This document shows, piece by piece, positions 1,455 to 54,300 of a stretch of DNA of 54,822 bases (its first letter is position 1; each line of letters opens with the position of its first letter). The stretch comes from Oscillospiraceae bacterium. GTDB taxonomy: Bacteria > Bacillota > Clostridia > Oscillospirales > Oscillospiraceae. Made by a program: the position numbers and the translations under genes. The DNA lies in NCBI GenBank assembly GCA_017541995.1, contig JAFXYD010000068.1, positions 1 to 54,822 on the forward strand, written 5' to 3'. Below the pieces are notes generated by a model. That model made no database searches. It saw nothing but the letters and a program-made list of their open reading frames with translations, and was not told the DNA's origin.

Positions 1455-3005
1455 ATGGAATGGATTTGGTATATCCTCCTGCCCCTTCTGGGCATCGCCG
1501 TTGGCGTCATTGCATCGGTCCTGGTCTTCACCAAAATGAAGAAGGACGCGGTTGAAAAGATAAAGAGCGCGGATGAGGAAGCCACGCGTCTGTATAACGA
1601 GGCCATCAAGGCCGGAGAAAACAAGAAGCGTGAAATGCTTCTGGAGGCCAAGGAAGAGATCCATAAAACTCGCACCGAAAACGAGAGAGAAAACAAGGAA
1701 CGCCGCACCGAGCTCAACAAGCAGGAGCGCCGCCTGCAGCAGAAGGAAGAGTCCCTGGACAAAAAGCTGGACAACTTCGAGCGCAAGGAGGAGGAGCTCC
1801 GCAAGCGTCAGCAGGCCGTGGTCAACACCCAGGAGGAGGTCAACTCCATCAAGAAGGCCCAGCTGGAGATGCTGGAAAAGATCTCCGGCCTGACCCAGGA
1901 GGAGGCCAAGGTCCTCATCATCAAGAACGTGGAGCAGGAGGCCCGGCATGACGCCGCCGTCAAGCTCAAGGACATCGAGGCCGAGCTGAAGGACAACGCC
2001 GATCAGCTGGCCCGGGAGATCATCTCCACCGCTATCCAGCGCTGCGCCGCCGACCACGCCGCCGAGACCACCGTCTCCGTGGTGGCCCTGCCCAACGACG
2101 AGATGAAGGGCCGGATCATCGGCCGCGAGGGCCGCAACATCCGCACCCTGGAGACCATCACCGGCGTCGATCTCATCATCGACGACACCCCGGAGGCCAT
2201 TACCGTCTCCTCCTTCGACCCCGTCCGCCGGGAGATTGCCCGGGTGGCCCTGGAAAAGCTGATTGCCGACGGCCGCATCCATCCCACCCGCATCGAGGAC
2301 ATGGTGGAGAAGGCCCGCCGGGAGGTGGAGACCACCATCAAGCGGGAGGGCGAGCGCGCCGTCTTCGAGACCGGCGTGCAGGGCCTGCATCCCGAGCTCA
2401 TCAAGCTCCTGGGCCGTCAGAAGTACCGCACCTCCTACGGCCAGAACGTGCTCAACCACTCCATGGAGGTGGCCCACATCGCGGGGCTGCTGGCCTCCGA
2501 GCTGGGGGAGGACGTGGCCCTGGCCAAGCGGGCCGGTCTGCTGCATGACCTGGGCAAGAGCGTGGACCACGAGATGGAGGGCAGCCACGTCCAGCTGGGC
2601 GTGGAGCTGGCCCGGAAGTACAAGGAATCGGCCGAGGTCATCCACGCCATCGAGGCCCACCACGGCGACGTGGAGGCCAAGACCGTCATCGCCTGCCTGG
2701 TGCAGGCGGCCGACGCCATCTCCGCCGCCCGCCCCGGTGCCCGGCGGGAGAACGTGGAGAACTACGTCCGCCGTCTGGAGAAGCTGGAGGAGCTCACCGG
2801 CTCCTTCCCCGGCGTGGAAAAGGCCTACGCCATCCAGGCCGGCCGGGAGGTCCGCATTATGGTGCGGCCCGAGGACGTCTCCGAGGACAATATGGTCCTC
2901 ATGGCCCGGGACATCGCCAAGAAGATCGAAGCCGAGCTGGAATACCCCGGCCAGATCAAGATCAACCTCATCCGCGAGACCAAGGCCGTGGATTACGCCA
3001 AGTAA
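1455..3005 (+). CDS. rny: Ribonuclease Y
   Basis: Membrane-anchored endoribonuclease that starts mRNA decay in Firmicutes. The 516-residue product has a single N-terminal membrane helix (~3-25), a long charged coiled coil (~30-190), a KH domain ([12 protein letters not shown] in the middle) and a metal-binding HD domain (HDLGK) near residue 360. Length and order match the family. ATG at 1455 is chosen because GGAGGTG lies about 9 nt upstream; an in-frame GTG at 1443 overlaps the ribosome binding site. It is a single gene, with its own promoter (1323-1351) and terminator (3016-3045). RNase J is encoded at 42845-44503 in the same window. Confidence 0.97.
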
Positions 3006-3015
3006 AGAACAAACC

Positions 3016-3045
3016 AAAAACGCGCGGCGCGAGCCGCGCGTTTTT
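3016..3045. terminator. Bidirectional terminator between rny and the Y-family polymerase gene
   Basis: A GC-rich stem (CGCGCGGC/GCCGCGCG, loop GCGA) is flanked by A5 on the left and T5 on the right, so it can end transcription from both convergent genes. Confidence 0.9.
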
Positions 3046-3052
3046 GTTCTTT

Positions 3053-23286: not shown

Positions 23287-23315
23287 TTGTTCCGCGGCGC
23301 TTTTTGTGCTACAAT
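23287..23315 (+). promoter_or_regulatory. Promoter of the giant phosphatase gene
   Basis: TTGTTC (23287-23292), 17-nt spacer, TACAAT (23310-23315) with extended -10 TGC (23307-23309). Confidence 0.65.
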
Positions 23316-23378
23316 AAAAGAGCTGAAAAAGTCCCTCCCGGGGCTTTGAGGAAATCTATTTACAAAGGAGTACGCAGT

Positions 23379-26300
23379 ATGAAGACAAGGTTTTCCAAGC
23401 GAATCCTGGCGCTGCTTCTGACCCTGCTGATGGTGCTTTCCCTGCTGCCCATGAGCTTTGCGGAAGAGGCGCCGAAGTCCGACGACCTGGTGATCCTGTT
23501 TACCAACGACATCCACTGCGGCGTGGATCAGAGTGACAGCTCCATCGGCATAGCCGGACTTGCGAAGATCAAGAAGGACATGGAGGCAACTCACAAGAAC
23601 GTCGCCCTGGTGGACAACGGCGACGCCATCCAGGGTGAGCTGATCGGTACCGTTTCCAAGGGCGAGTACATGGTTCAGCTCATGAACTTTGTGGGCTTCG
23701 ACTACGCCGCCTTCGGCAACCACGAGTACGACTACACCATGCCCCAGCTCAAGAAGCTGGTGGATATGGCCAAGGTCAAGTACCTGAGCTGCAACTTCCG
23801 GTACATCGGGGCTTCCGAGGACGAGAACGCGGTGAATCTGGACGGCTACACCGTGGTGGACTACGACGGCCTCAAGGTGGGCTACGTGGGCATCACCACC
23901 CCCGAGTCCCTGGTGAAGTCCACCCCCACCTACTTCCAGGACGAGAACGGCGAATGGATCTACACCTTCTGCAACGGCGGCGACGGCCAGGAGCTGTATG
24001 ACGCGGTGCAGACCGCCGTGGACGCGGCCAAGGCCGACGGCGCCCAGGTGGTGGTGGCCCTGGCTCATCTGGGCATCGACGAGCAGAGCGCCCCCTGGCG
24101 CTCCACCGACGTCATCGCCAACACCACCGGCATCGACGTCGTGCTGGACGGCCACTCCCACAGCACCATCGAGCGGCAGGAGGTGGCCAACAAGAACGGC
24201 GAGACCGTCCTCCTGTCCTCCACCGGCACCAAGCTGGCCCACGTGGGCAAGCTCACCGTCACCCCCGAGGGCGCGGTGAACACCGAGCTCATCAAGCGCT
24301 CCGACGTGGACGGCGTGGACCCCGAGACCCAGGCCTATCTGGAGCAGATCGAGGCCGAGTTCGAGGAGATGAAGCAGCAGGTCGTGGCCCACGTGGACTA
24401 TGACCTCCTCACCACCCACCCCGAGACCGGCAAGCGGATGATCCGCATGCGGGAGACCAACCTGGGCGACGTCTGCGCCGACGCCTACCGTACGGTGCTG
24501 GAGGCCGACGTGGCCTTTGTCAACGGCGGCGGCATCCGGGCCAACATCCCCGCCGGCGACGTGACCTATGAGCAGATCATCAACGTCCATCCCTACAGCA
24601 ACATGGGCTGCAAGGTCAAGACCACCGGCCAGCAGATCCTGGACGCCCTGGAGATGTCCGCCCGGAATCTGAACATGAACGAGGCCGGCGAGCTGGAGGG
24701 CGAGAACGGCGGCTTCCTCCACGTTTCCGGTCTGAAGTTCACCATCAACCTGGCCATTCCCTCCAGCGTCGTGGTGGATGAGAGCAAGATGTTCGTGGAA
24801 GTGGCCGGCGAGCGCCGGGTCCAGGACGTGAAGGTCCTGCAAAACGGCAAGTACGTGCCCATCGACCCTGCGGCCACCTACAGCCTGGCCTCCCACAACT
24901 ACATGCTCAAGGACTCCGGCGACGGCCTGAACATGTTCAAGAACGACGAGCTGCTGCTGGACGAGGTGAAGGTGGACAACCAGATCCTCATTGAGTACAT
25001 GAGCTCCGAGGAATTCGCCAAGCACGACTACTCCAACTGGGAGGGCGAGGGCCGCATCCGCATCGTCAACTTCAAGGGCGACGAGCTGGCGGGCAAGACC
25101 ATCATCCTCCACACCAACGACACCCACGGCGCGCTGCTGGGCTTCGCCCAGGTGGCCCAGGTCAAGGCCGACCTCGAGGCCCAGGGCGCCAGAGTGATCC
25201 TGGTGGACGCCGGCGACTTCAGCCAGGGCACCACCTACGTCTCCACCAACAAGGGCGCTGCCGCCGTCACCATGCTGAACGCGGCTGGCTACGACGTGGT
25301 CACCCTGGGCAACCATGAGTTCGACTTCGGCTTCAAGCAGCTGATGAAGAACCTGGGGGACAAGGAATTCACCGCCATCTGCGCCGACGTCTTCTACAAG
25401 GGCACCGACGAGACCATCCTTCCCACCTCCATCTCCATCGCCGGTGACGGTCTGAAAATCGGCTTCTTCGGCATGGAGACCCCCGAGACCCAGACCAAGG
25501 TCAATCCCGGCCTCATCACCGAGATCGACTTCGGCACCAACGAAAACGGCAAGTTCCTCACCTCCGCGCAGAACGCTGTGGCTGAGCTGAAGGACGGCGG
25601 CGCTGATATCATCATCGGCCTGGTGCACCTGGGCGTGGATCCCGAGTCCGAGCCCTACCGCTCCATGGATCTCTACAACGCCGTGGAGGGCATTGACTTC
25701 CTCATCGACGGCCACTCCCACACCCAGATGACCCCGGGCGCGGCGGAGTTCGGCGGCGATACCAACCCCTGCCCCGAGCTGCCCATCCAGTCCACCGGCA
25801 CCAAGGCCAGCGCCACGGCGCTGATGAACGTGGGCATGATCCAGATCGACAACGCCACCAAGACCATCGAGAAGACCGAGCTCATCCCCCTGGGCGCCAA
25901 CGCCCCCGTGGATGACGAGGTGGCCGCTGTGGCCCGGGAGATCATGGACACCGTGGACGCCGAGTACGGCGCCAAGTTTGCCGAGTCCCTGGTGGACCTC
26001 AACGGCGACCGGGCCCCCGGCAACCGCAACCAGGAGACCAACCTGGGCGATCTGATCACCGACTCCATGCTCTGGAGCGTCATGAAGGATATGGACGCCG
26101 AGACCCTGGGCGTGCCCGAGGAGAACGTGGTGGCCATCACGAACGGCGGCGGCATCCGTGCCTGGATCAAGAAGGGCGATGTCACCAAGAACGACGTGAA
26201 CACTGTCCTGCCCTTCGGCAATACCGTGGCCGTGGTCTACGTCAGCGGCGCGGAGCTGCTGGAGGCTCTGGAGGCTTCCACCCACTGCACCCCCACCGCC

Positions 26301-29300
26301 GTGGGCGGCTTCCCCCAGATCAGCGGCATGAACATCACCATCGACACCAAGAAGAGCTACGATCAGGGTGAGCTCTATCCCGGCTCCACCTACCATCAGC
26401 CCGCCTCCGTCCGCCGCGTCACCATCAACGACGTGAACGGCAAGGACTTCGATCCCGAGGCTACCTACGCGGTCATCACCAACAACTTCTGCGCGGCCGG
26501 CGGCGACACCTACTACGCCTTCCACGCCGCCTCCAGCCAGTTCGACACCGGCATCCCCCTGGACGAGGCCCTGATCAACTTCATCATGGACCCCGAGGGC
26601 ATGAACGGCGTCATCGGCGAGGACTACGCCGAGCCCCAGGGACGCATCACCCTGAAGAACGGCTTCGACGACGTGCAGGATCCCTCCAAGTACTACTACG
26701 CCCCCGTCTACTGGGCCTACGACCATGAGCCCCAGATCACCGGCGGCAAGACCGAGACCCTCTTCGGCGTCAAGAGCCCCTGCACCAGAGAGCAGATCGT
26801 GACCTTCCTGTGGAAGGCCTACGGCGCCGAGCAGCCCACCAATACGGAGAACCCCTTCACCGACGTGAAGGAGGGCAAGTACTACTTCAAGCCCGTCATG
26901 TGGGCCAAGGAGAAGGAAATCACCGGCGGCATCAGCAAGACACTCTTCGGCGTGGGCAAGCCCTGCAAGCGCGAGCAGGCTGTGACCTTCCTGTGGAAGG
27001 CGGCCGGCGCTCCCGAGCCCAAGACTACCGAGAACCCCTTCACCGACGTGAAGGCGGGCAAGTACTACTACAAGGCCGTCCTGTGGGCCCTGGAGAACGG
27101 CGTCACCGGCGGCGTCAGCGAGGACAAGTTCGGCGTTGGCAAGGACTGCACCCGCGCCCAGATCGTGACCTTCCTCTATGCCGCCCTGGAGAAGGAGCAT
27201 GAGGATACCGTCCGGGTCTTCGAGACCACCGACATCCACGGCTATCTGCTGGACACCTCCTCCGGCAACGAGGATACCTTCCAGTACCGCATGGCCTACC
27301 TGGCCAACATCTTCAACGAGGCCAGAGCCTCCGAGGAGTATGACGACGTGCTGCTCCTGGACGGCGGCGACATCTACCAGGGCACGCCCGTCTCCAACCT
27401 GCTGCAGGGCCGCGCCATTCGGGCCGCCCTGGACAAGATGGGCTACGACGCCGTGGCCCTGGGCAACCATGAGTTCGACTGGGGCGTCACCAAGAACGCC
27501 GACGCCGAGGGCACCGTCCCGGCCTATGAGCTGGGCTCTTTCAGCGGCGACCCCGATATCCCCGTTTTGGCCTACAACCTCTACGAGGCCGAGACCGGCG
27601 AGCCCGTCCCCTTCACCAAGGACTACGTGGTGGTGGAGAAGGCCGGATACCGCATTGCGCTGATCGGCTACATCCCCAACTACCGCGGCGACATCATGGC
27701 CGCGGAGATCAACCCCTATACCATCGACGAGGATCTGAACAAGCTGGCCGAGAAGGTTCATGAGATCAACGAGGCCGAGAAGCCCGACGTGACCATGATC
27801 CTGGCCCACGAAAGCCCCGCTGGCATCGCCAAGGCCATGGATCCCGCCGAGGTGGATCTTGTGCTGGGCGGCCACAGCCACACCGGCAGAGCCGGCGTCG
27901 CGGAGAACGGAATCCCCTACCTGCAGGGCAACTGCCAGGCCCAGGGCTACGCCAGCGCCAACCTTGTCATCACCAGAAAGGGCGCCGGTGAGCCCAGCGT
28001 CACCGTGACCGATCCCCTCTACACCGGCATCACCGCCTCCTCCAACCGCCCCAACCTCTACGACACCGAGGCCAACGCGGACAAGCTGGATCCCGTGATC
28101 CTGGAGCTGTCCCACCTGGCCTGGGATGAGGTCAAGGACGAGATGGAAGAGGTGCTGGGCTGGATTGACGTGCCCATCACCAAGAGCGGCAAGCTCAGCG
28201 ACAACGGCGCCACCCGTGCGGGCAACTGGATCTCCGGTCTGATGCTCCAGGGCACGGCCGAGCTCCATCCCGTGGCCGCCTTCTACAACAGCGGCGGAAT
28301 CCGCACCAGCTTCAACATTCCCGAGGGGGAGACCACCCGGGAGATCACCACCGGCGATATCTACACCATCAACCCCTTCGGCAACTCCTGGCTGGTCTAT
28401 GAGCTGACCGCCCCGGAGATTGCCCAGCAGCTGCTCAACGGCTTCAAGGAGCCCAACTACGGCGATCAGATGTCCGGCCTGACCTTCACCTACTGGCAGG
28501 AGGGCTCCGGCAAGAACGCTGAGCGCGGCATCGTCAGCATCACCCTAAGCGACGGCACCAAGCTGGACCTCAACGACAACGAGACCAAATACCGCGTCTG
28601 CACCACCAACTACAGCGCCACCCTGGACGGCAGCGTCTTCCAGGGCAAGGAGCCCATCGTCCCCATGGCTGACGCCCCTGTGGACAACGTCACCATCATC
28701 GAGCTGCTTCGGGCCGCCAAGGCCCAGGGCGACGGCTACATCCCCGTGGATGAGACCGGCCGCGGCACCAAGGTGGAGAAGCCCCAGGAGGTTCGGCTGG
28801 AGATGTGCTTCCCCAGCACCTCCAACGACGACATTGCCAAGTACGGCAACGTCTACGCCGACTGCAGCATTGACGACTTCCTGGCCGCCGGCTTTCAGCT
28901 GGGCGACTTGGTCACCGTGAAGTTCCTGGACCAGGAGCTGGAGCTGCCCGTGGTGCCCGACTATTCCTACGTGGACTCCGGCACCCCCGGCGTCTTCCTC
29001 CGCCGCACCAGAGCCGAGGGCGCCGACCGGGTGATCTTTGCCATCAACATGGGCAACTTCGCCGATACCTACGGCCTGGCCACCAAGACCACCAACCCCG
29101 ACAAGAGCTATTACTGGACCGCCAAGGAGGGCGTGGAGTTCCCCGTCCCCGTCACGGTGGAGCTGAAGGAAGCCGAGGGCTATATGGCCGAGCTGCTGCT
29201 GCACTCCATCGTGCGCACCAACAACCGGGAGGACTACCCCGAGCTGAGCGACGCCGAGTTCGCCAACTTCCGGAGAATCGACACCACCGGCATGGGCGAC

Positions 29301-32300
29301 CATCTCTACCGGGGCTCCAGCCCCATCAACCCTGAGATCGGCCGGAATACCTACGCCGACGCCGCTCTGGAGGAGGCCGGGGTCACCGTGGTGATGAACC
29401 TGGCCAACAGCCAGGCGGATGCCGAAGCCTATCCCGGCTTTGCCGAGACCTACTACTCCAAGCAGAACGTGGTCTACCTGAACCTGGGCGTGGACTTCTT
29501 TGCCCAGGAGTTCAAGACCGGCCTGGCCGCCGGCCTGCGGCACTTTGCCGCCAACCCGGGCGTCTACTACGTCCACTGCACCGAGGGCAAGGACAGAGCG
29601 GGCTTCGTCTCCGCCCTGCTGGAGTGCCTCATGGGCGCGAGCTATGACGAGGTGGTGGCCGACTATCTGAAGACCTACACCAACTACTACACCGTGGTGG
29701 ACGGCGTGCAGCAGCCCCTGTCCCAGGAGACCCTGGACGCCATCGCCCAGTCCAACATCATCAAGACCCTGCAGCGGGCCTTCGGGGTGGAGGATCTGAA
29801 GAACGCCGACCTGGCCGCCGAGGCCGAGGCCTACGTCAAGGAGCTGGGTCTGAGCGACGAGGAGCTCGCCGCCCTGAAGACCAACCTGGGGGGCGGCAAT
29901 CAGCCCTCCGTGAAGACCAGCTTCCCCTCCGCCACCAAGGCGGACATCGACAAGTACGGCGACGTGCACCTGTCCATCAGCTCCGCCGATCTGGCTGCCG
30001 CCGGCTTTGCCTACAAGGATCTGGTGAAGCTGAGCTTCCTGGATCAGGAGCTCATCGTGCCCATCATCCCGCAGTACCGCTATGTCGGGGCCAAGGCCGT
30101 GGGCCTGGTCATGTGGGAGGACGGGACCAAGCCCGCCGAGGTGGAGGTTTTCAACGGCAGCTTTGCCGCCAGCTACGGCCTGGCTGACGTGGTCCGCGAG
30201 GGCAGCGACTACACCGTCACCCCCAGAGAGGGCGTGGAGTTCCCCGTTCCCGTCACCATTGAGCTGTACGAGAAGCAGGGCTACGCCGACACCTACGCCA
30301 TTTTCGACCTGACCCGTTCCAACAACCGGGAGGACTACCGGGGCAACACCGAGCCCTATCCCAATCTGACGGATGAGGAATTCGCCAACTTCCGCAAGAT
30401 CAGCACCACCGGCATGGGCGAGGGCACCCTCTACCGCTCCTCCAGCCCCATCAACCCCGCCATCGGCCGTAACGGCTACGCCGACGCGGCTGCCGAAGCC
30501 GCCGGGATCAAGTCCTTCGTGAACCTGGCCGACTCCGCCGCCTCTGCCGCCAAGTACGCCGGCTACGCCGAGACCTACTACAGCAACCAGAACATCGCCT
30601 TCCTGAACCTGGGCGTGGACTTCACCACCGAGCTCAACCGCGAGGGCGTGGTGAGAGCCATGGACTTCATCGCCGCGGAGGATTCCGAGGCTCCCTTCCT
30701 GGTTCACTGCAACGAGGGCCAGGACCGGGCCGGCTTCGTCTCCGGTCTGCTGGAGTGCCTCATGGGCGCCAGCGCCGAGGAGGTCATTGAGGACTACATG
30801 ATCACCTTCTACAACTACTACGGCGTGCAGAAGGGCAGCGACCAGTACGCTCAGATCTCCAACAACATCGTCAAGAACCTCTCCACCGCCTTCGGCATCG
30901 AGACCGCCGACTTTGCCTCCGCCGACCTGGCCCAGGAGGCCGCCGACTACCTCAAGGAGCTGGGCGTTTCCGAGGAGACCATCGCCGCCGTCAAGGAAAA
31001 GCTGGGCGGAGCCGCCGGCAGCGAGGCGGAGTTTGAGTTCCTCATCACCTCCGACATCCACGGCCAGTTCTTCGCCACCGACTACACCAGACCCTATGAG
31101 CAGTCCGGCACCCACAACCAGGGCATGACCCGCATTTCCACCTACCTGAAGGAGCAGAAGGCGGAGTACGGCGACAACGCCTACATCGTGGACATGGGCG
31201 ACACCTTCCAGGGCGCGCCTCTGACCTACTACTACGCCTTCAACAAGCCCGAGGTGGAGGACCCCGCCATCAAGACCTTCCGCCACATCGGCTACGACAT
31301 GTGGATCGTGGGCAACCATGAGTTCAACTACGGTCTGGATATCCTGACCCGGCAGATGGACTACGCGGTTTCTCCCTCCACCGAGAACGAGAAGCAGCTC
31401 ACCATCTCCATGGCCAACTATCTGAAGGCCGAGACCAACAACGACGAGACCAAGGACTGGGCCACCTGGAGAGACGTGGCTCCCTACGTCATCAAGGACT
31501 TTGACGGGGTCAAGGTGGCCATCATCGGCTTCGGCAACCCCAACATCCCCCAGTGGGACGTTCCCGCCAACTGGGAGGGCATCTACTTCGCCAACATCAT
31601 CGACACCTACAAGCACTATGAGGCCGAGATGCTGGAGCAGGCCGACATGATCGTGGCGGTCGCCCACAGCGGCATCGGCTCCGATCCCGATTCCGACTTC
31701 ATGGAGCGGCTGATCAACGCCACCGACAGCATCGCCTTCGCCTTCTCCGGCCATGAGCACGGCAGCAAGGTCTACAACGCCACCAACGCCAAGGGCGAGA
31801 CCGTTCCCATTCTGCAGCCCGGCACCAAGGCCCGCTACGTGGCCAAGGTTGTGGTGAACTACGACAAGGCCGCGGGCAGCTACGAGATCGCGCCGGAGCT
31901 GGTGGATCTGCGGAACTATCCCCTGGACGAGGCGCTGGTGGAGATCCTCCAGCCCTACGAGACCGATACCTGGGAGAACTACATGCTCCAGCCCATCGGC
32001 AAGGCGCTGGGGGACTATCCCGCCGCCAACCTGGGCACCGCTCCCTCCGCCTTCGTGGACCTGATCAACACCGTGCAGCTCTGGGGCGCCTATGACCGGG
32101 GCGGCGTCAACACCCCCGACGATCCCTCCGACGACAGCCCCGCCATGCTGTCCATCACCGCGCCCCTCACCGCCGGCAACAACGCCAACCTGATCTCCCA
32201 GGGCGATATCTACCTGGGCGACATGTTCGGCCTGTACCGCTTCGAGAACTGGTTCTACCAGATCACCATGAGCGGCGAGGAGGTCCATCAGTGGCTGGAG

Positions 32301-33215
32301 TACTCCGCCTCCAAGGTCGTGCCCAACGGCAGCGGCGGCTACAACATCCAGGGCGGCCTGACCTACTACGACATCATCTACGGCGAGGGCTTCCACTATG
32401 ACTTCGACGTCAGCAAGCCCGCCGGCGAGCGCGTGGTCAACATGAGCTACAACGGCCAGCCCGTCACCGCCGACCAGGAGTTCACCGTGGTGGTCAACAA
32501 CTACCGCTACAACGGCGGCGGCGACTATGTCAAGTATCTGAACGAGCACGGCTGCAGCTTCACCCCCAACGACCCCGACCGTATCATCTACTCCACCCAG
32601 TTCGACATGATCCAGGGCGAGGATGAGGGCCAGGCCCGCACCCTGCTGACCCGCTACATCCAGCAGGAGACCGAGGCCCACGGCGGCATCACCCCCTCCA
32701 TCCTCTCCGACTGGCGGATCCTGGACGGCAGCGAGGAAGAGCCCCAGACCGGCTTTGTGCCCGCCGATTCCGTGGAAGACGGCGATGAGATTATCTACGT
32801 GGTTTCCTACAATGGCAAGAATTACGCCATGACCAACGATACCTCCCTCAGCAGCGCCCTTGGCGTTGAGGAAGTAACCGTGGAGGAGGATGGCACCATT
32901 GCCGAGGCCGGCGACGCTGCGGTCTGGACGCTGACTGCCGGTTCTGCCGACGGAAAGTTCACCCTGAAGGATGCCAACGGCAAGTTCATCAGCTATTCCA
33001 GCGGCACGACGCTGAAGCTGGCGGATGCCGGTACCGAGTTTGCCGTGACCTGCGGCAGCGGAACCGCCGCCATCAAGGCCAACGACACCAGACAGATTTT
33101 CCTGCGGGACAACAGCGGCACACTGCAGTTCCGCTGCTATGCCACGCAGAATCTGACCGCCAACGGCTATTGCGGCGTCCTGACCGTCTACAAATGGGTC
33201 GAGCCCGAAGCATAA
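23379..33215 (+). CDS. Giant exported multi-domain 5'-nucleotidase / MptpB-like phosphatase with internal SLH array
   Basis: A 3,278-residue secreted protein starting at ATG 23379 (AAAGGAG 8 nt upstream), signal peptide 1-28. Four UshA-type modules each carry the metallophosphoesterase motifs (D-x-H, GD, GNHE, H-x-H/H-x-H-like): ~36-565 (TNDIH, GNHEYDY), ~573-1098 (GNHEFDFGF), ~1276-1809 (GNHEFDWGV) and ~2550-3120 (GNHEFNYGLD). Module 1 and 2 C-domains show ETNLGD and NGGGIRA, the nucleoside-binding part. Between modules 2 and 3 lie three SLH repeats (~1104-1275). Between 3 and 4 lie two tyrosine/dual phosphatase domains with HCxEG(K/Q)DRAGF loops (Cys2067/Arg2073; Cys2444/Arg2450) of the MptpB/LipA type. 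A C-terminal beta-rich domain (~3125-3278) follows. No LPXTG is seen. It likely hydrolyses extracellular nucleotides, cyclic nucleotides and perhaps phosphoinositides or inositol phosphates at the cell wall; substrates are inferred. Confidence 0.88.
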   Translation: MKTRFSKRILALLLTLLMVLSLLPMSFAEEAPKSDDLVILFTNDIHCGVDQSDSSIGIAGLAKIKKDMEATHKNVALVDNGDAIQGELIGTVSKGEYMVQLMNFVGFDYAAFGNHEYDYTMPQLKKLVDMAKVKYLSCNFRYIGASEDENAVNLDGYTVVDYDGLKVGYVGITTPESLVKSTPTYFQDENGEWIYTFCNGGDGQELYDAVQTAVDAAKADGAQVVVALAHLGIDEQSAPWRSTDVIANTTGIDVVLDGHSHSTIERQEVANKNGETVLLSSTGTKLAHVGKLTVTPEGAVNTELIKRSDVDGVDPETQAYLEQIEAEFEEMKQQVVAHVDYDLLTTHPETGKRMIRMRETNLGDVCADAYRTVLEADVAFVNGGGIRANIPAGDVTYEQIINVHPYSNMGCKVKTTGQQILDALEMSARNLNMNEAGELEGENGGFLHVSGLKFTINLAIPSSVVVDESKMFVEVAGERRVQDVKVLQNGKYVPIDPAATYSLASHNYMLKDSGDGLNMFKNDELLLDEVKVDNQILIEYMSSEEFAKHDYSNWEGEGRIRIVNFKGDELAGKTIILHTNDTHGALLGFAQVAQVKADLEAQGARVILVDAGDFSQGTTYVSTNKGAAAVTMLNAAGYDVVTLGNHEFDFGFKQLMKNLGDKEFTAICADVFYKGTDETILPTSISIAGDGLKIGFFGMETPETQTKVNPGLITEIDFGTNENGKFLTSAQNAVAELKDGGADIIIGLVHLGVDPESEPYRSMDLYNAVEGIDFLIDGHSHTQMTPGAAEFGGDTNPCPELPIQSTGTKASATALMNVGMIQIDNATKTIEKTELIPLGANAPVDDEVAAVAREIMDTVDAEYGAKFAESLVDLNGDRAPGNRNQETNLGDLITDSMLWSVMKDMDAETLGVPEENVVAITNGGGIRAWIKKGDVTKNDVNTVLPFGNTVAVVYVSGAELLEALEASTHCTPTAVGGFPQISGMNITIDTKKSYDQGELYPGSTYHQPASVRRVTINDVNGKDFDPEATYAVITNNFCAAGGDTYYAFHAASSQFDTGIPLDEALINFIMDPEGMNGVIGEDYAEPQGRITLKNGFDDVQDPSKYYYAPVYWAYDHEPQITGGKTETLFGVKSPCTREQIVTFLWKAYGAEQPTNTENPFTDVKEGKYYFKPVMWAKEKEITGGISKTLFGVGKPCKREQAVTFLWKAAGAPEPKTTENPFTDVKAGKYYYKAVLWALENGVTGGVSEDKFGVGKDCTRAQIVTFLYAALEKEHEDTVRVFETTDIHGYLLDTSSGNEDTFQYRMAYLANIFNEARASEEYDDVLLLDGGDIYQGTPVSNLLQGRAIRAALDKMGYDAVALGNHEFDWGVTKNADAEGTVPAYELGSFSGDPDIPVLAYNLYEAETGEPVPFTKDYVVVEKAGYRIALIGYIPNYRGDIMAAEINPYTIDEDLNKLAEKVHEINEAEKPDVTMILAHESPAGIAKAMDPAEVDLVLGGHSHTGRAGVAENGIPYLQGNCQAQGYASANLVITRKGAGEPSVTVTDPLYTGITASSNRPNLYDTEANADKLDPVILELSHLAWDEVKDEMEEVLGWIDVPITKSGKLSDNGATRAGNWISGLMLQGTAELHPVAAFYNSGGIRTSFNIPEGETTREITTGDIYTINPFGNSWLVYELTAPEIAQQLLNGFKEPNYGDQMSGLTFTYWQEGSGKNAERGIVSITLSDGTKLDLNDNETKYRVCTTNYSATLDGSVFQGKEPIVPMADAPVDNVTIIELLRAAKAQGDGYIPVDETGRGTKVEKPQEVRLEMCFPSTSNDDIAKYGNVYADCSIDDFLAAGFQLGDLVTVKFLDQELELPVVPDYSYVDSGTPGVFLRRTRAEGADRVIFAINMGNFADTYGLATKTTNPDKSYYWTAKEGVEFPVPVTVELKEAEGYMAELLLHSIVRTNNREDYPELSDAEFANFRRIDTTGMGDHLYRGSSPINPEIGRNTYADAALEEAGVTVVMNLANSQADAEAYPGFAETYYSKQNVVYLNLGVDFFAQEFKTGLAAGLRHFAANPGVYYVHCTEGKDRAGFVSALLECLMGASYDEVVADYLKTYTNYYTVVDGVQQPLSQETLDAIAQSNIIKTLQRAFGVEDLKNADLAAEAEAYVKELGLSDEELAALKTNLGGGNQPSVKTSFPSATKADIDKYGDVHLSISSADLAAAGFAYKDLVKLSFLDQELIVPIIPQYRYVGAKAVGLVMWEDGTKPAEVEVFNGSFAASYGLADVVREGSDYTVTPREGVEFPVPVTIELYEKQGYADTYAIFDLTRSNNREDYRGNTEPYPNLTDEEFANFRKISTTGMGEGTLYRSSSPINPAIGRNGYADAAAEAAGIKSFVNLADSAASAAKYAGYAETYYSNQNIAFLNLGVDFTTELNREGVVRAMDFIAAEDSEAPFLVHCNEGQDRAGFVSGLLECLMGASAEEVIEDYMITFYNYYGVQKGSDQYAQISNNIVKNLSTAFGIETADFASADLAQEAADYLKELGVSEETIAAVKEKLGGAAGSEAEFEFLITSDIHGQFFATDYTRPYEQSGTHNQGMTRISTYLKEQKAEYGDNAYIVDMGDTFQGAPLTYYYAFNKPEVEDPAIKTFRHIGYDMWIVGNHEFNYGLDILTRQMDYAVSPSTENEKQLTISMANYLKAETNNDETKDWATWRDVAPYVIKDFDGVKVAIIGFGNPNIPQWDVPANWEGIYFANIIDTYKHYEAEMLEQADMIVAVAHSGIGSDPDSDFMERLINATDSIAFAFSGHEHGSKVYNATNAKGETVPILQPGTKARYVAKVVVNYDKAAGSYEIAPELVDLRNYPLDEALVEILQPYETDTWENYMLQPIGKALGDYPAANLGTAPSAFVDLINTVQLWGAYDRGGVNTPDDPSDDSPAMLSITAPLTAGNNANLISQGDIYLGDMFGLYRFENWFYQITMSGEEVHQWLEYSASKVVPNGSGGYNIQGGLTYYDIIYGEGFHYDFDVSKPAGERVVNMSYNGQPVTADQEFTVVVNNYRYNGGGDYVKYLNEHGCSFTPNDPDRIIYSTQFDMIQGEDEGQARTLLTRYIQQETEAHGGITPSILSDWRILDGSEEEPQTGFVPADSVEDGDEIIYVVSYNGKNYAMTNDTSLSSALGVEEVTVEEDGTIAEAGDAAVWTLTAGSADGKFTLKDANGKFISYSSGTTLKLADAGTEFAVTCGSGTAAIKANDTRQIFLRDNSGTLQFRCYATQNLTANGYCGVLTVYKWVEPEA

Positions 33216-33290: not shown

Positions 33291-33526
33291 CTGTAGCGCC
33301 GGCAATCTGCCGGCCGAAACGCGAACCAAGTCTGTAGTGCCGGCAATCTGCCGGCCGAAACACGAACTAAGTCTGTAGCGCCGGCAATCTGCCGGCCAAA
33401 ACACGAACCAAGTCTGTAGCGCCGGCAATCTGCCAGCCGAAACGCGAACCAAGTCTGTAGTGCCGGCAATCTGCCGGCTCTGACGCAAAGCTGAAGCGGA
33501 CCCGGCCGGCAGATTGCCGGCACTAC
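33291..33526. repeat. BIME-like array of GTAG-headed REP palindromes
   Basis: Five direct units with a 41-bp period start at 33291, 33332, 33373, 33414 and 33455, and one inverted unit ends at 33526. Each has GTAG, one base, the stem GCCGGCA/TGCCGGC and the loop ATC. Unit 4 has one mismatch in the stem. The ~20-nt segments between stems (CGAAACGCGAACCAAGT-like) are also conserved, so the unit is the whole 41 bp. The final inverted copy makes the arrangement resemble the paired BIME form of enterobacterial REPs. It lies between a terminator and a carboxypeptidase gene. Confidence 0.85.
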
Positions 33527-33610
33527 AATCAGACAAATCCCAATTTGCCTCCCCGGCATATTCCCCCGCCGCGGGCATATCCTGTACCAAACCGCTTTGG
33601 AGGGAGAAAG

Positions 33611-34756
33611 ATGCGAAAAACGCTTTGCCTGCTGATGATCGCCGCCCTGCTGCTGGGGACGGCGCCCCGGGCCTGGGGGGAGGGGCCCGCCCTGGAGCTC
33701 CACGCCCCCTCCGCCATTCTGATGGACGCCGCCACCGGCACGGTGCTCTTTGAAAAAAACGCCGACGAGCGACGGGAGCCCGCCAGCGTCACCAAGGTCA
33801 TGACCCTGCTGCTGGTGATGGAGGCCCTGGAGGCCGGACAGATCGGCTGGGAGGATCGGGTCACCGCCTCCGCCGCCGCCGCGGCCAAGGGGGGCAGCCA
33901 GATCTACCTGGAGGAGGGGGAGCAGCTCTCCCTGGACGAGATGCTGAAATCCGTGGTGGTGAGCTCCGCCAACGACTGCGCCTGCGCCCTGGCGGAGCAC
34001 GTGGCGGGGAGCGAGACGGCCTTTGTAGCCCGGATGAATCAGCGGGCCGGGGAGCTGGGCATGACCAATACTCACTTCGTCAACTGCACCGGCCTGGACG
34101 ACGGGCCCGAGGCCCGGGAGCACCTCACCACCGCCCGGGACGTGGCCCTGATGTCCCGGGCGCTGCTGGGGCATGAGGCCATCCGCCGCTATACCACCAT
34201 CTGGACGGATACGGTCCGGGGCGGGGCCTTCGGCCTGTCCAACACCAACAAGCTGGTGCGCTTCTACGAGGGCACCACCGGTCTGAAAACCGGCTACACC
34301 TCCACGGCGGGCCACTGCCTCTCCGCCACCGCCAGGCGGGAGGGCATGGAGCTCATCGCCGTGGTGCTGGGGGACGATTCCTCCTCCCACCGCTTCGAGG
34401 ACGCCAAGGCCCTGCTGAACTGGGGCTTTGCCAACTACGCCCTGGTGGAGCCCCTGGAGGGGGTGACCCCACCCCCCGTTCCGGTGGAGCTGGGCGCGGC
34501 GGAGGCCGTGACCCCGGTGCCGGAGCAGAGCGGCCCCATTCTGATCGCCAGGGCCAAGGCCGCCTCCGTCACCCGCCAGCTGGAGCTGCCGGAGGGGGTG
34601 CAGGCCCCGGTGGAGGCCGGGCAGCGCCTGGGGACGCTGCGGATCAAGGCGGGGGAGGAGCTGCTGGCGGAGCTGCCTCTGACGACCCCGGAGCCCGTGC
34701 CCCGGCTCAGCTTCGGTCAGATCTGGCTGCGGCTGCTGCAAAGCCTGCTGAGCTGA
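33611..34756 (+). CDS. D-alanyl-D-alanine carboxypeptidase (DacF/PBP5-like)
   Basis: Trims the terminal D-Ala from peptidoglycan stem peptides. The 381-residue product has a signal peptide (~1-23), then SxxK = Ser59-Val-Thr-Lys62, SAN = 119-121 and KTG = 226-228, the complete penicillin-binding triad. The C-terminal ~110 residues are the beta-domain that places it near the membrane, ending in an amphipathic helix (IWLRLLQSLLS) that acts as membrane anchor. ATG 33611 follows GGAGGGAGAAAG. Confidence 0.95.
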   Translation: MRKTLCLLMIAALLLGTAPRAWGEGPALELHAPSAILMDAATGTVLFEKNADERREPASVTKVMTLLLVMEALEAGQIGWEDRVTASAAAAAKGGSQIYLEEGEQLSLDEMLKSVVVSSANDCACALAEHVAGSETAFVARMNQRAGELGMTNTHFVNCTGLDDGPEAREHLTTARDVALMSRALLGHEAIRRYTTIWTDTVRGGAFGLSNTNKLVRFYEGTTGLKTGYTSTAGHCLSATARREGMELIAVVLGDDSSSHRFEDAKALLNWGFANYALVEPLEGVTPPPVPVELGAAEAVTPVPEQSGPILIARAKAASVTRQLELPEGVQAPVEAGQRLGTLRIKAGEELLAELPLTTPEPVPRLSFGQIWLRLLQSLLS

Positions 34757-48335: not shown

Positions 48336-48375
48336 ATATACAGCGGCCCCATATTTATAAAAAAGGAGAATCTGT

Positions 48376-51300
48376 ATGCAACAAAAGCACCTTCCCCGTC
48401 GGCTGCTTTCGCTCCTGCTGACCCTCGCCATGCTCTTTACGCTGCTGGTTCCCGCGGTCTCCGCGGCGCCGGACAGCCGGGCAGACGAGGGCCGGGAGCT
48501 GGAGCTCAGCCCCCTGGACCCCACCACCCTGCAGGTACAAAAGCTGGGTGAAACCGAGGACGCTGCCCCCGCGGCGGAGCAGTCTCCCTATGCCCTGACG
48601 GACCTGGTCCGCGTCTCCATCGTGCTGGAGGGCGCGGCCACTCTGGACCGTTACCCCCTGCGGAACGTGGCGCGAAACAGCGCCGCCCTGGCCTACCGGC
48701 AGACGCTGCGGGCGGCCCAGAACGTGATGCAGGCCAAGATCGAAGCGGCCACCGGCAAGAAGCTGGCGGTCAAGTGGAACATGACCCTGGCGGCCAACAT
48801 CATCTCCGCCAACGTCCGCTACGGCGAGATCGAGACCATCCGGCAGGTCCCCGGCGTGGCCCGGGTGGTGATCGAGAACCGCTACGAGGCCCCCAAGGAT
48901 GAAGCGGGCGACGCCTCCCCCAACACCGCCAATACCTCCGAGAACATGGTGGGCGCCTGGGAGGCCTGGGATCTGGGCTATACCGGCGCCGGCTCCCGGG
49001 TGGCCATCATCGACACCGGCATCGACACCGCGCACCAGTCCTTCGCCGCCGAGCCCTTCAACTACTCCGTGGGCCAGGCCGGGGCGACGGGCGAGCTGAT
49101 GACCCAGGCCCAGGTTCAGGCCCTGGCCAATCAGCTGAACTCCAAAACCGGCAACTACGTCAACGCCAAGATCCCCTACGGCTACAACTACGTGGACGGC
49201 AACACCACCATCGACCACATGAGCGACACCGAGGGCAACCACGGCTCCCATGTGGCGGGCATTGCCGCCGCCAACCGCTACGTCGGCTCCGCCCACGATG
49301 ACGCCGCCGAGACCGTCGGCGCCGTGGGCATGGCCCCCGATGCCCAGCTCTTTGTCATGAAGGTCTTCGGCGCGAACGGCGGCGCCTACGACTCTGACTA
49401 CATGGTAGCCATTGAGGACGCCATCGTTCTGGACTGCGACGTGGTGAACCTCTCTCTGGGCTCCGGCTCCCAGGGCTGGACCTATGACGGCACCTACCAG
49501 GATATTCTGAACAATCTGACCGACAAGGCCCATAACGAGGGCATGGTGGTGGCCATCTCCGCCGGCAACTCCTATGACTTCGCCTATGCCACCGGATCCC
49601 GGAACCTGTACAAGGACGACGTCTACTACCACACCGGCGGCAGCCCCGGCACCTTTGCCAACAGCCTCTGCGTGGCCGCTGCCCAGAACACTCTGAGCAA
49701 GGGTACCCCCATGAACTTCAACGGCGTGGGCGACGTGTTCTACTATGAGTCCACCGGCAACGAAGAGGAGGGCACCACCTACACGAACCCCGCCCTGAGC
49801 ACCATCAAGGGCAGCTATTCCTACGTCTACATCGACGGCGTGGGCAGCGCCGCGGAATACGCCGCGGTCAACAGCGCCCTCTCCCTCTCCGGCAAGATCG
49901 TTATCGTCAACCGCGGCGAGCTCTCCTTCGTGGAGAAGGGCGAGAACGCCAAGTCCTACAACCCCAAGGCGGTCATCATTGCCAACAACCAGGACGGTAC
50001 CATCTACATGGATCTGACCGACTTCACCGGCAGCTTCCCCATGGTGACCATCACCCTGAAGGACGCCAACAAGATCAAGGCGGCCTCCGCCTCCCAGACC
50101 GCCGGCGGCTATACCGTTTACACCGGCAGCGTTGAAGTCACCGACGTGGAGAAGGAGGTCACCATCGACCGCTCCCAGGCCACCATCAGCGACTTCTCCT
50201 CCTGGGGCGTTCCCGGCTCCCTGCTGATGAAGCCTGAGATCACCGCCCCCGGCGGCAACATCTACTCCGTCAACGGCACCAACAAGACCTCCTCCGGCAC
50301 CGCAGGCGGCGCCGATCAGTACGTCTCCTACTCCGGCACCTCCATGGCGGCCCCCCACATCGCTGGCCTCTCCGCCTTGGTGGCGGAGTATCTGCGGGAG
50401 AATCCCATCTCCGGCCGCAACAGCGAGCTCAGCGCCAACTATTCCACCCGCGCCATCATCCAGAGCCTGCTGATGTCCACCGCCACTCCCATGGCGCCGG
50501 ATAACGAGTACCTCTCCATCCTGCAGCAGGGCGCGGGCCTGGTGGAGGCGGCGAAGGCGGTTCAGTCCCCCTCCGTCATTATGATGACCGACGAGGGCAA
50601 CACCCTGACCGTCCGCACCGGTGCCAACGCCGACGGCAAGATCAAGGCCGAGCTGGGCGACGACCCCGCCAAGACCGGGGCCTACAGCTTCGGCTTCAAG
50701 GTCTATAACCTCACCGACAACGGCCTGACCTACGAGCTGGACACCGATCTCTTCTCCCAGAAGATCTCCGGCGAGTTCCTGGCCCACGGCACCAGCCTGC
50801 TGCCCGCCGGCGGTGTGAGCTATACCTGGAACGGCCAGAGCGCCGAGGCCGAGGGCCACGACGTGGACAAGGACGGCGACACCGACAATGACGACGCCCA
50901 GGCCATTCTGGACTACCTGTCCGGCGAGAAGGCCGCCGCCGAGCTGGATCTGACCGCGGCCGACCTGGACGAGGACGGCGAGGTCACGTCCCGGGACGCC
51001 TATCTGCTCATCGACTGGGTTCCCGAGGCAGCCCCCGACGCCTCCTACACCGTGCCCGCCCACGGCGTGGCGGAGGTGAAGGTCACCATCAATCTGAGCG
51101 CCGACCAGCGCGCCGCCCTGGCCGCCTACGCCAAGGGCGCCTATCTGGAGGGCTTCACCTATCTGAGCTGCTCCGACGGCAGCGAGCACTCCATCCCCAT
51201 CCTGGGCTTCTACGGCTCCTGGACCGAGCCCTCCATGTTCGACAACATGTCCTATGTGGACGAGCTCTACGGCGCCCAGCGCATCCCCTACTCCGGCACC

Positions 51301-54300
51301 TCCGACACCAACTACCTGCTGATGAACTACGCCGGGGCCAACGTCAAGTTCTCCGGCAACCCCTACATGGTGGAGGACGAGTTCCCCGCCCAGCGCCTGG
51401 CCATCAACGGCAGCACCAATCTGATCCGGATCTCCTACAACCTGATCCGCTCCGCCGCCACCACCGGCTATGCCGTGAGCAGACTGGACGCCGACCACAA
51501 GGTCACCGAGGTCATCTCCTCCACCGTCACCGGCAACGGCGTGCTGGGCCAGTGGTACTACGTCAACCAGGGCAGCTGGCAGAACACCATGACCAAGCTC
51601 TACGCCATCAACAAGACCGTGGCCTCCTACGGCCTCACCGACGGCGAGCTGTTCCGGGTGGGCTACTACGCTATCCCCGAGTACAACGGCATGGTGGTCA
51701 ATGAGAGCTACGACCAGGGCGACTGCGGCATGCTGGATCAGACTGGCTTCAACAAGCTGCTGCTGAGCAACAGCCTGGGCAGCGGCGCCTTTGTGGGCTA
51801 CGACTTCACCGTGGATAACACGGCGCCCCAGGTCACCAATGCGGTTCTGAACGGCAGCACCCTGTCCGTATCCGCCTCCGACAACCTGAACCTGGCCTAC
51901 GTGGCGGTTCTGAGCCTGGACGGCTCCGTCAAGTACGCCGAGAAGGCCCCCGGCGCCAGCGAGTATACCATCAGCTTCGATGCCTCCGAGGCCATTGCCA
52001 ACGCCAACGGCTACGTGGCCGTCTTCGCGGGCGACTACGCCGGCAACGAGGCCGCCGTGGCCGTCAAGGTCAACGACAACACCCATGTGGAAAAGACCGT
52101 CTACGTCCTCACCGACAGTCTGACTGCCGGCAACGACTACGTCATCGCCGAGGTCAACGCCGCGGGCACCGCCCACGTTCTGGGCTACACCGCCGGCACC
52201 TGGAGCAACACCGTGACCGCTGTCTCCGTCACCGTGAAGCCCGCCAGCGCGGACTCCGGCAACAAGCCCTATATCGAGACCGCCGACGTGCCCGCCACCG
52301 CCGTGTGGACCGCCAGCTCCGGCGTCAAGCTGATGAACGGCAATTACTATCTGCGCCGGAACTCCAATTCCGGTACGACCCTCCAGGTCAGCACCACCAA
52401 CAGCTACAACAGCTGGAGCTACGACGCAGCCAACAGTCGTCTGGGCTTTACTGACAGAGCTACCTACTTGCGGTTCTACAACAACAACTTCAGCCTCAGC
52501 ACCGCCACTACCAACAAGATCTACCTCTACGTCAAGACCACCATTTCCTACGAGGTGGATCCCTACGCCGTCTCCGGCGTCAGCGTGACCCCCGAGACCC
52601 TGGATCTCTACAAGGGCGCCACCGCGGACCTTACCGCCAAGGTGACCCCGCTGACCGCCAGCGACCGCACGGTGAGCTGGTCCTCCAGCAACACCGGCGT
52701 TGCTACCGTGGACCAGAACGGCCATGTGACCGCGGTTGCCAAGGGCACGGCTACGATCACCGCCAGCTCCAATGCCAATTCCGCCATCAAGGGCAGCTGC
52801 ACCGTCACGGTGGAGGCGGTGAACAAGGAGCTCAGCGCCATCATCTGGGACGAGGAGGGCAGCGTCTTCTTCTCCTACTTCAACGCCAACAACCTCCCCA
52901 CCTGGACCAAGCGTACCAACAATGCCACCACCCTGAACGGCAATCCCCTGTATCTGCATAACGCCTTTATGCAGTCCGCCTCCGCCCTGTATGCCTCCAC
53001 GCTGGACATCAACGACACCTCCGTGATCTACAGCATCAACCGCAGCACCTACGCCGCCACTGAATACGGCACCAACTATGTACCGGCCTTCGGCATGGCC
53101 AGAGGCCCCACAGGCTTCTCCGGCTATACCTTCTACGCCTACGGCTTCGCCAAGTATCTGATCCTGGGCAATCTGCCCCCCGAGACCGACGACGAGCTGG
53201 GCACCTTCTCCGGCTTCCCCTACGGTCTGCTGGATCTGACCGGCACCGACGTGGGCGACGCCTACGCCGTGGGCATCTGCGCCAGAACCGTCAGCTCCAC
53301 CTCCTGCTCCTACTATTTCCTGGATGAGACCGGCAAGATCTGGACCACCACCGTCAGCTACAGCAACGGCTTCAACTGGACCGCCCCCACCTTAGTGGTG
53401 GACACCGGCCTGGGCGCCGGGCTGCAGTACCAGTCCCTGTACTATGACGGCACCTGGATCTATTGGTCCCGTCAGGCGGACAACGTCTCCGAGCTGATTA
53501 TGTACAACCCCAGCACCGGCAAGCTCTACAACGCCGGCAACTTCGGCGAGGGCGTCTGGCCCGCCGCCGGTCTGTACGTGAACGGCTCCGCCGCCCCCGC
53601 CTCTGTGGAGGAGCCCGCCGAGGGTCTGGAGCTGAAGCCTCTGCGGATCAAGCGCGACGAGCTCATGACGGCTGAAATCAAGGCCCGCTTCGCCGCCGAG
53701 ACCGAGAAGAACGAGCCCGCCAACCTGGTCAACGGCGGCGCCAACGCGGTCTCCGTCTCCCCCCTGGTCAAGACCACCGACGGGAGCACCGGCGAGGCCG
53801 AGAACGGCAGCGTCACCCTCACCCTCACCGAGACCGAGGACGTGAACAACGGCCTGGTCACCGTGACCTACGATCCCGCCGTTCTGACCTACACCGGCAG
53901 CAGCTCCGATTTCGCCTATATCTCCGTCCATCCCGTGAGCGGCGTCATCACCCTGGCCTTTGCCGACAAGACTGCCCATACCGACCTGGCTGTGCTGAAC
54001 TTCAGCTACACCGGCATGCTGAACACCAACGTCACCGTCCATACCGCCCAGCGGAACACCGCCCTGGCTGTTGCCGAGGACGATATGGTGATTAACCTGA
54101 AGGACGGCTCCAAGCTCGTCTCCGTCTACGTGGTGGACGAGTTGGACGGCGAGAGCCTCTACGCCTGGGCCTGGGGCAACGCCGGCAACCTGGATGCTGC
54201 CTGGCCTGGTCGCGCTCTGAGCGCCGAGGGCGTCGACAAGGGCGGCCACCCCTACTACAAGATCGAGCTGGATCTGGTGGATTATGACAAGATCATCTTC

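What the first reader, a model, noticed from the sequence alone, without database searches (positions are those of the whole stretch)
23379..33215. 3,278-residue exported enzyme with four nucleotidase and two phosphatase modules
Single UshA/CpdB-like nucleotidases with SLH domains are common, but four intact metallophosphoesterase modules plus two HCxEG(K/Q)DRAGF phosphatase modules in one chain are not something I know as a described architecture. All four GNHE motifs and both Cys/Arg loops are kept, so all six sites may be active. The combination could strip phosphate from nucleotides, cyclic nucleotides, phosphoproteins and phosphoinositides/inositol phosphates in one place, and could convert host ATP/AMP to adenosine.
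Basis: partly seen in the sequence, partly recalled or inferred. Interest (0 to 1): 0.75.

Follow-up and report, generated by a model that had tools for sequence, protein, structure and literature searches.

The report
Giant mosaic surface phosphate-stripping enzyme chain
A gut bacterium, probably of ruminants, appears to carry one enormous cell-surface protein that strings six phosphate-removing enzyme modules together, and related species hold modules of the same kinds in other numbers and orders, so it looks like a natural mix-and-match enzyme that deserves biochemical testing.

Summary
Window 23379-33215 (+) is one open frame of 3,278 codons: NT1-NT2-SLHx3-NT3-(BD1-PTP1)-(BD2-PTP2)-NT4-C-domain (NT = UshA/CpdB-type nucleotidase, PTP = Cys phosphatase, BD = small front domain). 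All four NT modules keep metal motifs and two base-stacking aromatics; both PTP loops keep Cys, Asp and Arg. It is not one lucky fusion: ten genus genomes carry chains of the same kinds of modules beside the same neighbour genes, and another has 3,504 residues with six catalytic modules in another order. NT4 is about 96% identical in DNA to a congener's, other shared parts 78-86%, which suggests recent module exchange. Best reading: a wall-bound phosphate/nucleoside scavenging enzyme, an enlarged relative of YfkN-type double nucleotidases.

The parts
23287..23315 (+). candidate promoter TTGTTC-17-TACAAT with TG before the -10
   Evidence: located by script; below the threshold of the consensus scan, which does not list it
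23365..23370 (+). Shine-Dalgarno AAGGAG, 8 nt before the ATG
23379..33215 (+). whole gene, 3,278 aa, about 358 kDa
23379..23465 (+). signal peptide (residues 1-29)
   Evidence: read by eye; no predictor run
23478..25064 (+). NT1, 5'-nucleotidase-like module (34-562)
   Evidence: Pfam; PDB 2z1a 4e-27
25092..26618 (+). NT2, 5'-nucleotidase-like module (572-1080)
   Evidence: Pfam; PDB 2z1a 7e-43, CD73 about 1e-30
26661..27194 (+). three SLH repeats (1095-1272)
   Evidence: Pfam 3 stretches, 2.8e-22
27204..28802 (+). NT3, divergent nucleotidase module (1276-1808)
   Evidence: Pfam; separate clade; relatives in 9 of 400 family genomes, own included
28809..29078 (+). BD1, SAM_HAT_C-like domain (1811-1900)
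   Evidence: Pfam 26.5 bits in the whole protein, cut-off 25.5; below the cut-off as a piece; profile of 23 BD rows to PDB 2zbu 1.2e-8
29079..29918 (+). PTP1, Cys phosphatase, HCTEGKDRAG at residue 2066 (1901-2180)
   Evidence: Pfam Y_phosphatase3; PDB MptpB 1ywf 1.4e-4
29922..30203 (+). BD2, second front domain (2182-2275)
   Evidence: 42% identical to BD1; the BD2-PTP2 piece itself has no SAM_HAT_C match at E<=1
30204..30998 (+). PTP2, Cys phosphatase, HCNEGQDRAG at residue 2443 (2276-2540)
   Evidence: Pfam Y_phosphatase3 5.7e-13
31014..32798 (+). NT4, CpdB-like module (2546-3140); probably exchanged recently
   Evidence: Pfam; PDB 3qfk and YfkN 3gve; about 96% DNA identity to L031 from 31020 to about 32740
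32850..33212 (+). C-terminal domain of uncertain type (3158-3278)
   Evidence: Fascin 0.004, below cut-off; similar stretches in L028, L029, L030, L033
33237..33263 (+). intrinsic terminator, 12-bp stem, 11 G-C pairs, T run
   Evidence: the scan found 9 sites in the region against 8.0 (sd 3.1) in shuffles, so this rests on the stem's strength and place

Best explanation
A single-gene, exported, SLH-anchored multi-phosphoesterase that collects phosphate and nucleosides at the cell surface. NT1 and NT2 should strip phosphate from 5'-nucleotides; NT4 (CpdB side) should open 2',3'-cyclic nucleotides and hydrolyse 3'-nucleotides; NT3 has an unknown substrate; PTP1 and PTP2 are cysteine phosphatases of the MptpB/Y_phosphatase3 kind, for phosphomonoesters such as phosphotyrosine, inositol phosphates or phosphoinositides. 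Keeping them in one wall-bound chain would let products pass between neighbouring sites and hold phosphate near the cell. The chain evolved by gain, loss and exchange of whole modules in a conserved chromosomal slot, probably on an older NT1-NT2-SLHx3-NT4 plan into which NT3-(BD-PTP)2 was placed. Shown here: the frame, modules, conserved motifs, the slot, different module orders, and an NT4 far more alike than its surroundings. Inferred: export, anchoring, activity, substrates, benefit, the ancestral plan, and exchange as the cause of the NT4 likeness.
For: Domains and motifs. Aromatic pairs in all four NT modules (Y406/Y508, F946/F1037, F1667/Y1745, F2955/Y3042; alignments, numbers), as UshA F429/F498 and CpdB Y440/Y544 (PMC7922932, passages). 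H, C, E, G, D, R and G of the P-loop invariant in 25 of 25 aligned BD-PTP rows. Slot: 10 genus genomes carry a chain beside at least one of the window gene's neighbours (7 upstream, 6 downstream, 3 both sides), three of them as NT1-NT2-SLHx3-NT4. G014 has SLHx3-NT2-PTP1-NT4-PTP2-NT3-PTP in 3,504 aa. NT4 against L031: 93-99 matches per 100 columns from 31020 on; orthologous parts 86% (NT2-SLH), 85% (BD1-PTP1), 78% (Dac); NT4 of L030 and L027 only 83% and about 78%. Genome has 92 SLH matches.
Against: No polysaccharide pyruvyl transferase (PF04230), the usual maker of the SLH ligand (recalled), was found in the 78%-complete genome. SLHx3-NT3, PTP2-NT4 and NT4-C-domain junctions were seen only in the window among the chains examined, so an assembly chimera is not excluded. 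Just outside NT4 the window and L031 hold different modules (PTP2 against PTP1; different C-ends), so the sharp edges of likeness there are not in themselves proof of recombination. Dac is inverted relative to 6 of 6 relatives with both genes, beside repeats.
Confidence: 0.7

Rival explanations
1. Assembly chimera: the contig joins parts of chains from two or more related species, so this exact order does not exist in any cell, although shorter mosaic chains do.
For: 122 contigs, 78% complete; NT4 about 96% identical to another species'; three junctions seen only here; Dac inverted and repeats downstream.
Against: All junctions keep the frame. The NT4 likeness starts at the module's first residues rather than inside an identical stretch, where assemblers tend to jump (general knowledge). 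A six-module chain in another order exists in G014, and frames up to 2,610 aa occur in the same slot elsewhere.
Confidence: 0.15
2. Host-directed immune modulator: the chain makes adenosine and removes cyclic dinucleotides near the host epithelium, like surface nucleotidases of streptococci.
For: NT2 resembles CD73; NT4 resembles CpdB enzymes, which act on cyclic dinucleotides (PMC4905662 and PMC9958556, starts of abstracts).
Against: No virulence context among the ten window genes scanned; related records are largely ruminant gut metagenomes (12 of 21 by title, 4 of these by a recalled prefix); the PTP modules do not need this role.
Confidence: 0.1
3. Phytate/inositol-phosphate degrader: the BD-PTP modules are the key activity and act as ALP-type phytases on plant feed, while the nucleotidases finish off nucleic-acid phosphate.
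For: PTP1 has the HCXXGKDR[TA]G loop; Pho16B with that loop and a Y_phosphatase3 domain hydrolyses InsP6 at about 30% of its best rate (PMC6409689, passages). Plant-fed animal gut.
Against: No match to a PTP-like phytase family among the Pfam hits; PTP2 lacks the lysine; Pho16B's preferred substrate was not InsP6.
Confidence: 0.15
4. Some modules are non-catalytic binding units; only NT2, NT4 and PTP1 work, and NT1, NT3 and PTP2 hold substrate or spacing.
For: NT1 has YSN where NT2 and NT3 have FGN; NT3 lacks the GGD after its second aromatic (by eye); PTP2 has Q for K.
Against: All metal motifs, GNHE and Cys/Asp/Arg residues are kept, and PTP2 and NT3 are kept at 83% and 71% identity in G014.
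Confidence: 0.15

Closest known systems
YfkN of Bacillus subtilis and NCBIfam PRK09419 (CpdB+UshA fusions)
   Same: several UshA/CpdB-type nucleotidase units in one exported chain; NT4 matches YfkN's solved domain
   Different: YfkN has two units (recalled) and a sortase motif (PMC3222306, start of abstract); here four units, SLH repeats mid-chain and two PTP modules; the four PRK09419 model cut-offs are missed
Atypical lipid phosphatases (ALPs: MptpB, Lmo1800, Pho16B)
   Same: Y_phosphatase3 domain; PTP1 carries HCXXGKDR[TA]G; Asp in the P-loop
   Different: ALPs are described as phosphatase domain only (PMC3091653, passages); here each has a front BD domain and is fused to nucleotidases; PTP2 lacks the lysine
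C-terminal domain of SAM hydroxide adenosyltransferase / chlorinase / fluorinase (PF20257)
   Same: profile of BD rows matches 2zbu (labelled uncharacterised), 7ccg (labelled RNA polymerase delta), PH0463, chlorinase and fluorinase chains; that the first three belong to this family is recalled. YGN of BD aligns with FGN of 2zbu and 7ccg
   Different: the N-terminal catalytic domain of that family was not seen here; used as front domain of a cysteine phosphatase; BD2 of the window has no direct match
NT-BD-PTP proteins in Lachnospiraceae, an Oscillibacter record and a Sphaerochaeta record
   Same: same three-part unit (L042-L048)
   Different: one unit only, frames of 918-1,121 codons plus one cut frame of 1,420

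Membership tests
5'-nucleotidase superfamily (PF00149 + PF02872) | both domains above Pfam cut-off in each module | tested here: met
   NT1 39.1/123.4, NT2 35.1/120, NT3 36.2/58.5, NT4 38.8/83.8 bits against cut-offs 21.5/23.6
5'-nucleotidase superfamily (PF00149 + PF02872) | metal motifs, GNHE and two stacking aromatics | tested here: met
   stacking role from PMC7922932; metal-ligand roles recalled
UshA, CpdB or Nt5e models (NCBIfam) | score above curated cut-off | tested here: not met
   best UshA 175 of 600 bits (NT2), CpdB NF006938 167 of 486 (NT4), Nt5e 196 of 1050 (NT1)
PRK09419 / YfkN | score above curated cut-off over the CpdB+UshA pair | tested here: not met
   NF006934 574 of 1646, NF006937 464 of 2554, NF006935 412 of 2801, NF006936 302 of 2542 bits
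ALP (PMC3091653) | HCXXGKDR[TA]G in PTP1 | tested here: met
   HCTEGKDRAG at 2066; 25 of 27 BD-PTP units fit
ALP (PMC3091653) | HCXXGKDR[TA]G in PTP2 | tested here: not met
   HCNEGQDRAG in the window and in its G014 counterpart
ALP (PMC3091653) | phosphoinositide phosphatase activity | not testable with these tools
   needs assay
PTP-like phytase | Pfam PTP-like phytase match | tested here: not met
   not among matches (E<=0.1; E<=1)
SAM_HAT_C (PF20257) | domain match, BD1 | tested here: met
   26.5 bits against 25.5 in the whole protein; 22.4-23.7 as a piece; 21 of 23 BD rows match at E<=0.01
SAM_HAT_C (PF20257) | domain match, BD2 | tested here: inconclusive
   no match of the BD2-PTP2 piece at E<=1; 42% identical to BD1
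SLH-anchored surface protein | signal peptide and SLH repeats | tested here: met
   3 SLH stretches; signal peptide by eye only
SLH-anchored surface protein | pyruvyl transferase for the wall ligand | tested here: inconclusive
   PF04230 not found, but the genome is only 78% complete

The most novel reading that the evidence does not exclude
The genus runs a single-polypeptide counterpart of a cellulosome for organic phosphate: a slot in which phosphoesterase modules are swapped, gained and lost between species to tune substrate range. The BD domains, kin of the C-terminal domain that helps hold adenosine in SAM-hydroxide adenosyltransferase/fluorinase enzymes (role recalled), still bind nucleosides or nucleotides and steer them to the cysteine phosphatase, giving a new class of nucleotide-directed PTP.
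Probability: 0.12. Interest if true: 0.75.

Novelty: new variant of a known kind. Interest (0 to 1): 0.52.

Why it matters
If real, it puts six phosphoesterase modules of two unrelated catalytic mechanisms (two-metal and cysteine) in one surface chain, and gives a natural series of chains of rising size in one gene slot, which allows direct tests of whether linking helps. A module far more alike between species than its surroundings hints at how such giants are built. It also points to a domain pairing (SAM_HAT_C-like plus Y_phosphatase3) whose function is open, and to enzymes that may matter for phosphate recycling in ruminants.

Tried and rejected
Assembly or gene fusion artefact as the whole explanation: set aside because of the G014 chain and the slot series, but kept as a rival for this exact order. 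Recent tandem duplication: rejected for the NT modules, which are 23-30% identical; BD1/BD2 are 42% and PTP1/PTP2 54% identical, and PTP2's nearest kin is in G014, so not a fresh duplication either. Phage origin: no match of the PTP pair in 50,697 phage records. PTP-like phytase family: no Pfam match. C-terminal domain: no reliable solved relative (best E 0.038); the trefoil label in my scripts is only a nickname. Literature: seven searches ran, which combined nucleotidase with SLH terms, returned nothing. Only bears on the SAM_HAT_C plus tyrosine phosphatase pairing, and it listed 8 of 1,923 papers, so absence in print is not established; the library is open-access only. PMC10454023 and PMC9958556 were searched by term only: the first mentions natural UshA-CpdB fusions, and the term SLH does not occur in either. 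No fold comparison was possible without a model. Correction: an earlier count said 7 relatives for the Dac strand; the count is 6. In checking, I withdrew the argument that sharp edges around NT4 prove recombination, because the flanking modules compared there are different ones.

Full report
Observation. The frame 23379-33215 on the + strand translates to 3,278 residues without a stop. Pfam finds four Metallophos and four 5_nucleotid_C stretches, two Y_phosphatase3 and SLH repeats (three SLH when the piece is scanned alone). The order is signal peptide (by eye), NT1 (34-562), NT2 (572-1080), SLHx3 (1095-1272), NT3 (1276-1808), BD1 (1811-1900), PTP1 (1901-2180), BD2 (2182-2275), PTP2 (2276-2540), NT4 (2546-3140), C-domain (3158-3278). 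The gene has a Shine-Dalgarno and a weak candidate promoter and is followed by a 12-bp terminator stem (the scan as a whole found no more sites than shuffles, 9 against 8.0). In the window's genome 4 of 4 PF02872 and 2 of 2 PF13350 matches lie in this ORF (genome 78% complete).

Active sites. All four NT modules keep D-x-H, D-x-G-D, GNHE and GH[SE]H. Alignment with solved enzymes shows both base-stacking aromatics in each: Y406/Y508, F946/F1037, F1667/Y1745, F2955/Y3042 (numbers). In UshA and CpdB these are F429/F498 and Y440/Y544 (PMC7922932, passages). NT2 is nearest to the 5'-nucleotidase 2z1a and CD73, NT1 to 5'-nucleotidases, NT4 to 3qfk and the CpdB/YfkN side, with GNHEFN in place of GNHEFD. 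NT3 is far from all others (own clade with its G014 counterpart), with matches in 9 of 400 family genomes at E<=1e-25, own included; the seven outside the two giants are frames of 818-1,088 codons with one NT3, six of them with SLH repeats. None of the modules reaches an NCBIfam cut-off, so I do not call them UshA or CpdB.

Phosphatase modules. PTP1 is nearest in the PDB to MptpB (1ywf, 1.4e-4) and 8dhi. Its loop HCTEGKDRAG fits the ALP signature HCXXGKDR[TA]G, in which Asp serves catalysis and Lys substrate binding (PMC3091653, abstract and passages). PTP2 reads HCNEGQDRAG. Of 27 BD-PTP units collected, 25 have GKDR and the two exceptions are PTP2 and its G014 counterpart, which are 83% identical: a kept change rather than decay. 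It predicts weaker phosphoinositide binding.

BD domains. A profile of 23 BD rows finds, at the top of the PDB list, 2zbu (1.2e-8, labelled uncharacterised), 7ccg (5.2e-6, labelled RNA polymerase delta), PH0463 (0.0044), chlorinase (2q6i, 0.0098) and fluorinase (1rqp, 0.021); that the first three are SAM-hydroxide adenosyltransferase-type proteins is recalled. 21 of 23 rows match PF20257. The window's BD1 is just over the cut-off within the whole protein and below it alone; the BD2-PTP2 piece has no match at E<=1 and is tied in by 42% identity to BD1. The pairing with Y_phosphatase3 occurs also in Treponema (L051). One literature search bears on the pairing (8 of 1,923 papers listed, none seen to describe it).

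Relatives and slot. In 23 genus genomes, own included, the PTP pair matches in 11 at E<=0.001, nine of them below 1e-50, and 5_nucleotid_C in 16. In ten genus genomes a chain of such modules sits next to genes that flank the window's gene: amidohydrolase or flippase upstream in seven, D-Ala-D-Ala carboxypeptidase (Dac) downstream in six, both sides in three; MazG was found between flippase and chain only in L030, and Mfd in two loci. The small gene just before the giant (HU by my recall) matches in seven loci. Complete frames, counted stop to stop: NT1-SLH-NT4-like (1,335), NT2-SLH-NT4 (1,476), NT1-NT2-SLH-NT4 (1,838, 1,850, 2,069), NT2-NT2-SLH-NT4-BD-PTP-C (2,412), SLH-NT-...-BD-PTP-BD-PTP-C (2,610); three more are cut by contig ends. 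This explains SLH lying mid-chain here. G014 has, in a stretch without these neighbours, SLHx3-NT2-PTP1-NT4-PTP2-NT3-PTP in 3,504 residues, six catalytic modules in another order. In 400 family genomes BD-PTP units occur in 79 at E<=1e-10 (38 of 106 genera), and the longest frames listed are G014's and the window's; in a class-wide draw they occur in 7 of 391 at E<=1e-40, own included. The PF02872 list for the family was cut, so I give no count of chains by NT number.

Exchange. Against L031 (G013), DNA identity in NT4 is 93-99 per 100 columns from 31020 on and ends near 32740. Orthologous parts of the same pair are at 86% (NT2-SLH), 85% (BD1-PTP1) and 78% (Dac), and NT4 of L030 and L027 is at 83% and about 78%, so NT4 is not simply slow. 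The likeliest cause is recent exchange of the module. The low values just outside (54-81 per 100 before, about 24 of 60 after) compare different modules (window PTP2 with L031 PTP1; unlike C-ends) and do not by themselves place recombination edges. An assembly chimera remains possible until long reads exist.

Mechanism and confidence. Export and wall anchoring are inferred from sequence; the usual SLH-ligand enzyme family was not found in the incomplete genome, though it has 92 SLH matches. Phosphate and nucleoside scavenging is the simplest role. I put 0.7 on this reading in outline and far less on any one substrate.

Noticed in passing
window 33298-33521: Palindromic repeat GCCGGCAATCTGCCGGC, five copies here and 65 exact copies in the genome (0 for the reversed control), several as inverted pairs about 43 nt apart. 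A weak Y1_Tnp match (6.7e-4) at G000:C98:7420-7683 lies between such copies: possibly a REP/RAYT system.
   Followed up: partly
window 33545-34753: The carboxypeptidase gene is on the same strand as the giant, while in 6 of 6 relatives with both genes it is on the other strand. Genes that look like GlmU, Prs and Pth (recalled labels) lie between it and Mfd in L028 and L033 and are absent at this place in the window; the rest of the genome was not searched for them. Real inversion or misassembly at the repeats.
   Followed up: partly
L057, L058, L059, L061, L062: Other giant frames (2,241-2,959 codons, L062 cut) in the genus with about 1,300-1,600 residues before SLH repeats and one NT. Pfam was run only on L057: nothing over a cut-off in that N-terminal part.
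   Followed up: no
window 48361-54822 (+): Second giant open frame, at least 2,154 codons, running off the contig: subtilase, PA, dockerin, Big_2 and a sub-threshold CBM26 match. The 1,534-residue minus-strand ORF there has no Pfam match and is probably its shadow.
   Followed up: partly
G000 genome: 92 SLH matches in one 2.48 Mb genome, several in frames over 2,000 codons, yet no PF04230 pyruvyl transferase found (genome incomplete).
   Followed up: no
L060 1097-9532: A cut 2,812-codon frame in G014 with F5/8-type, nucleotidase, ricin-like, FIVAR and SLH domains: nucleotidase fused to carbohydrate-binding parts.
   Followed up: no
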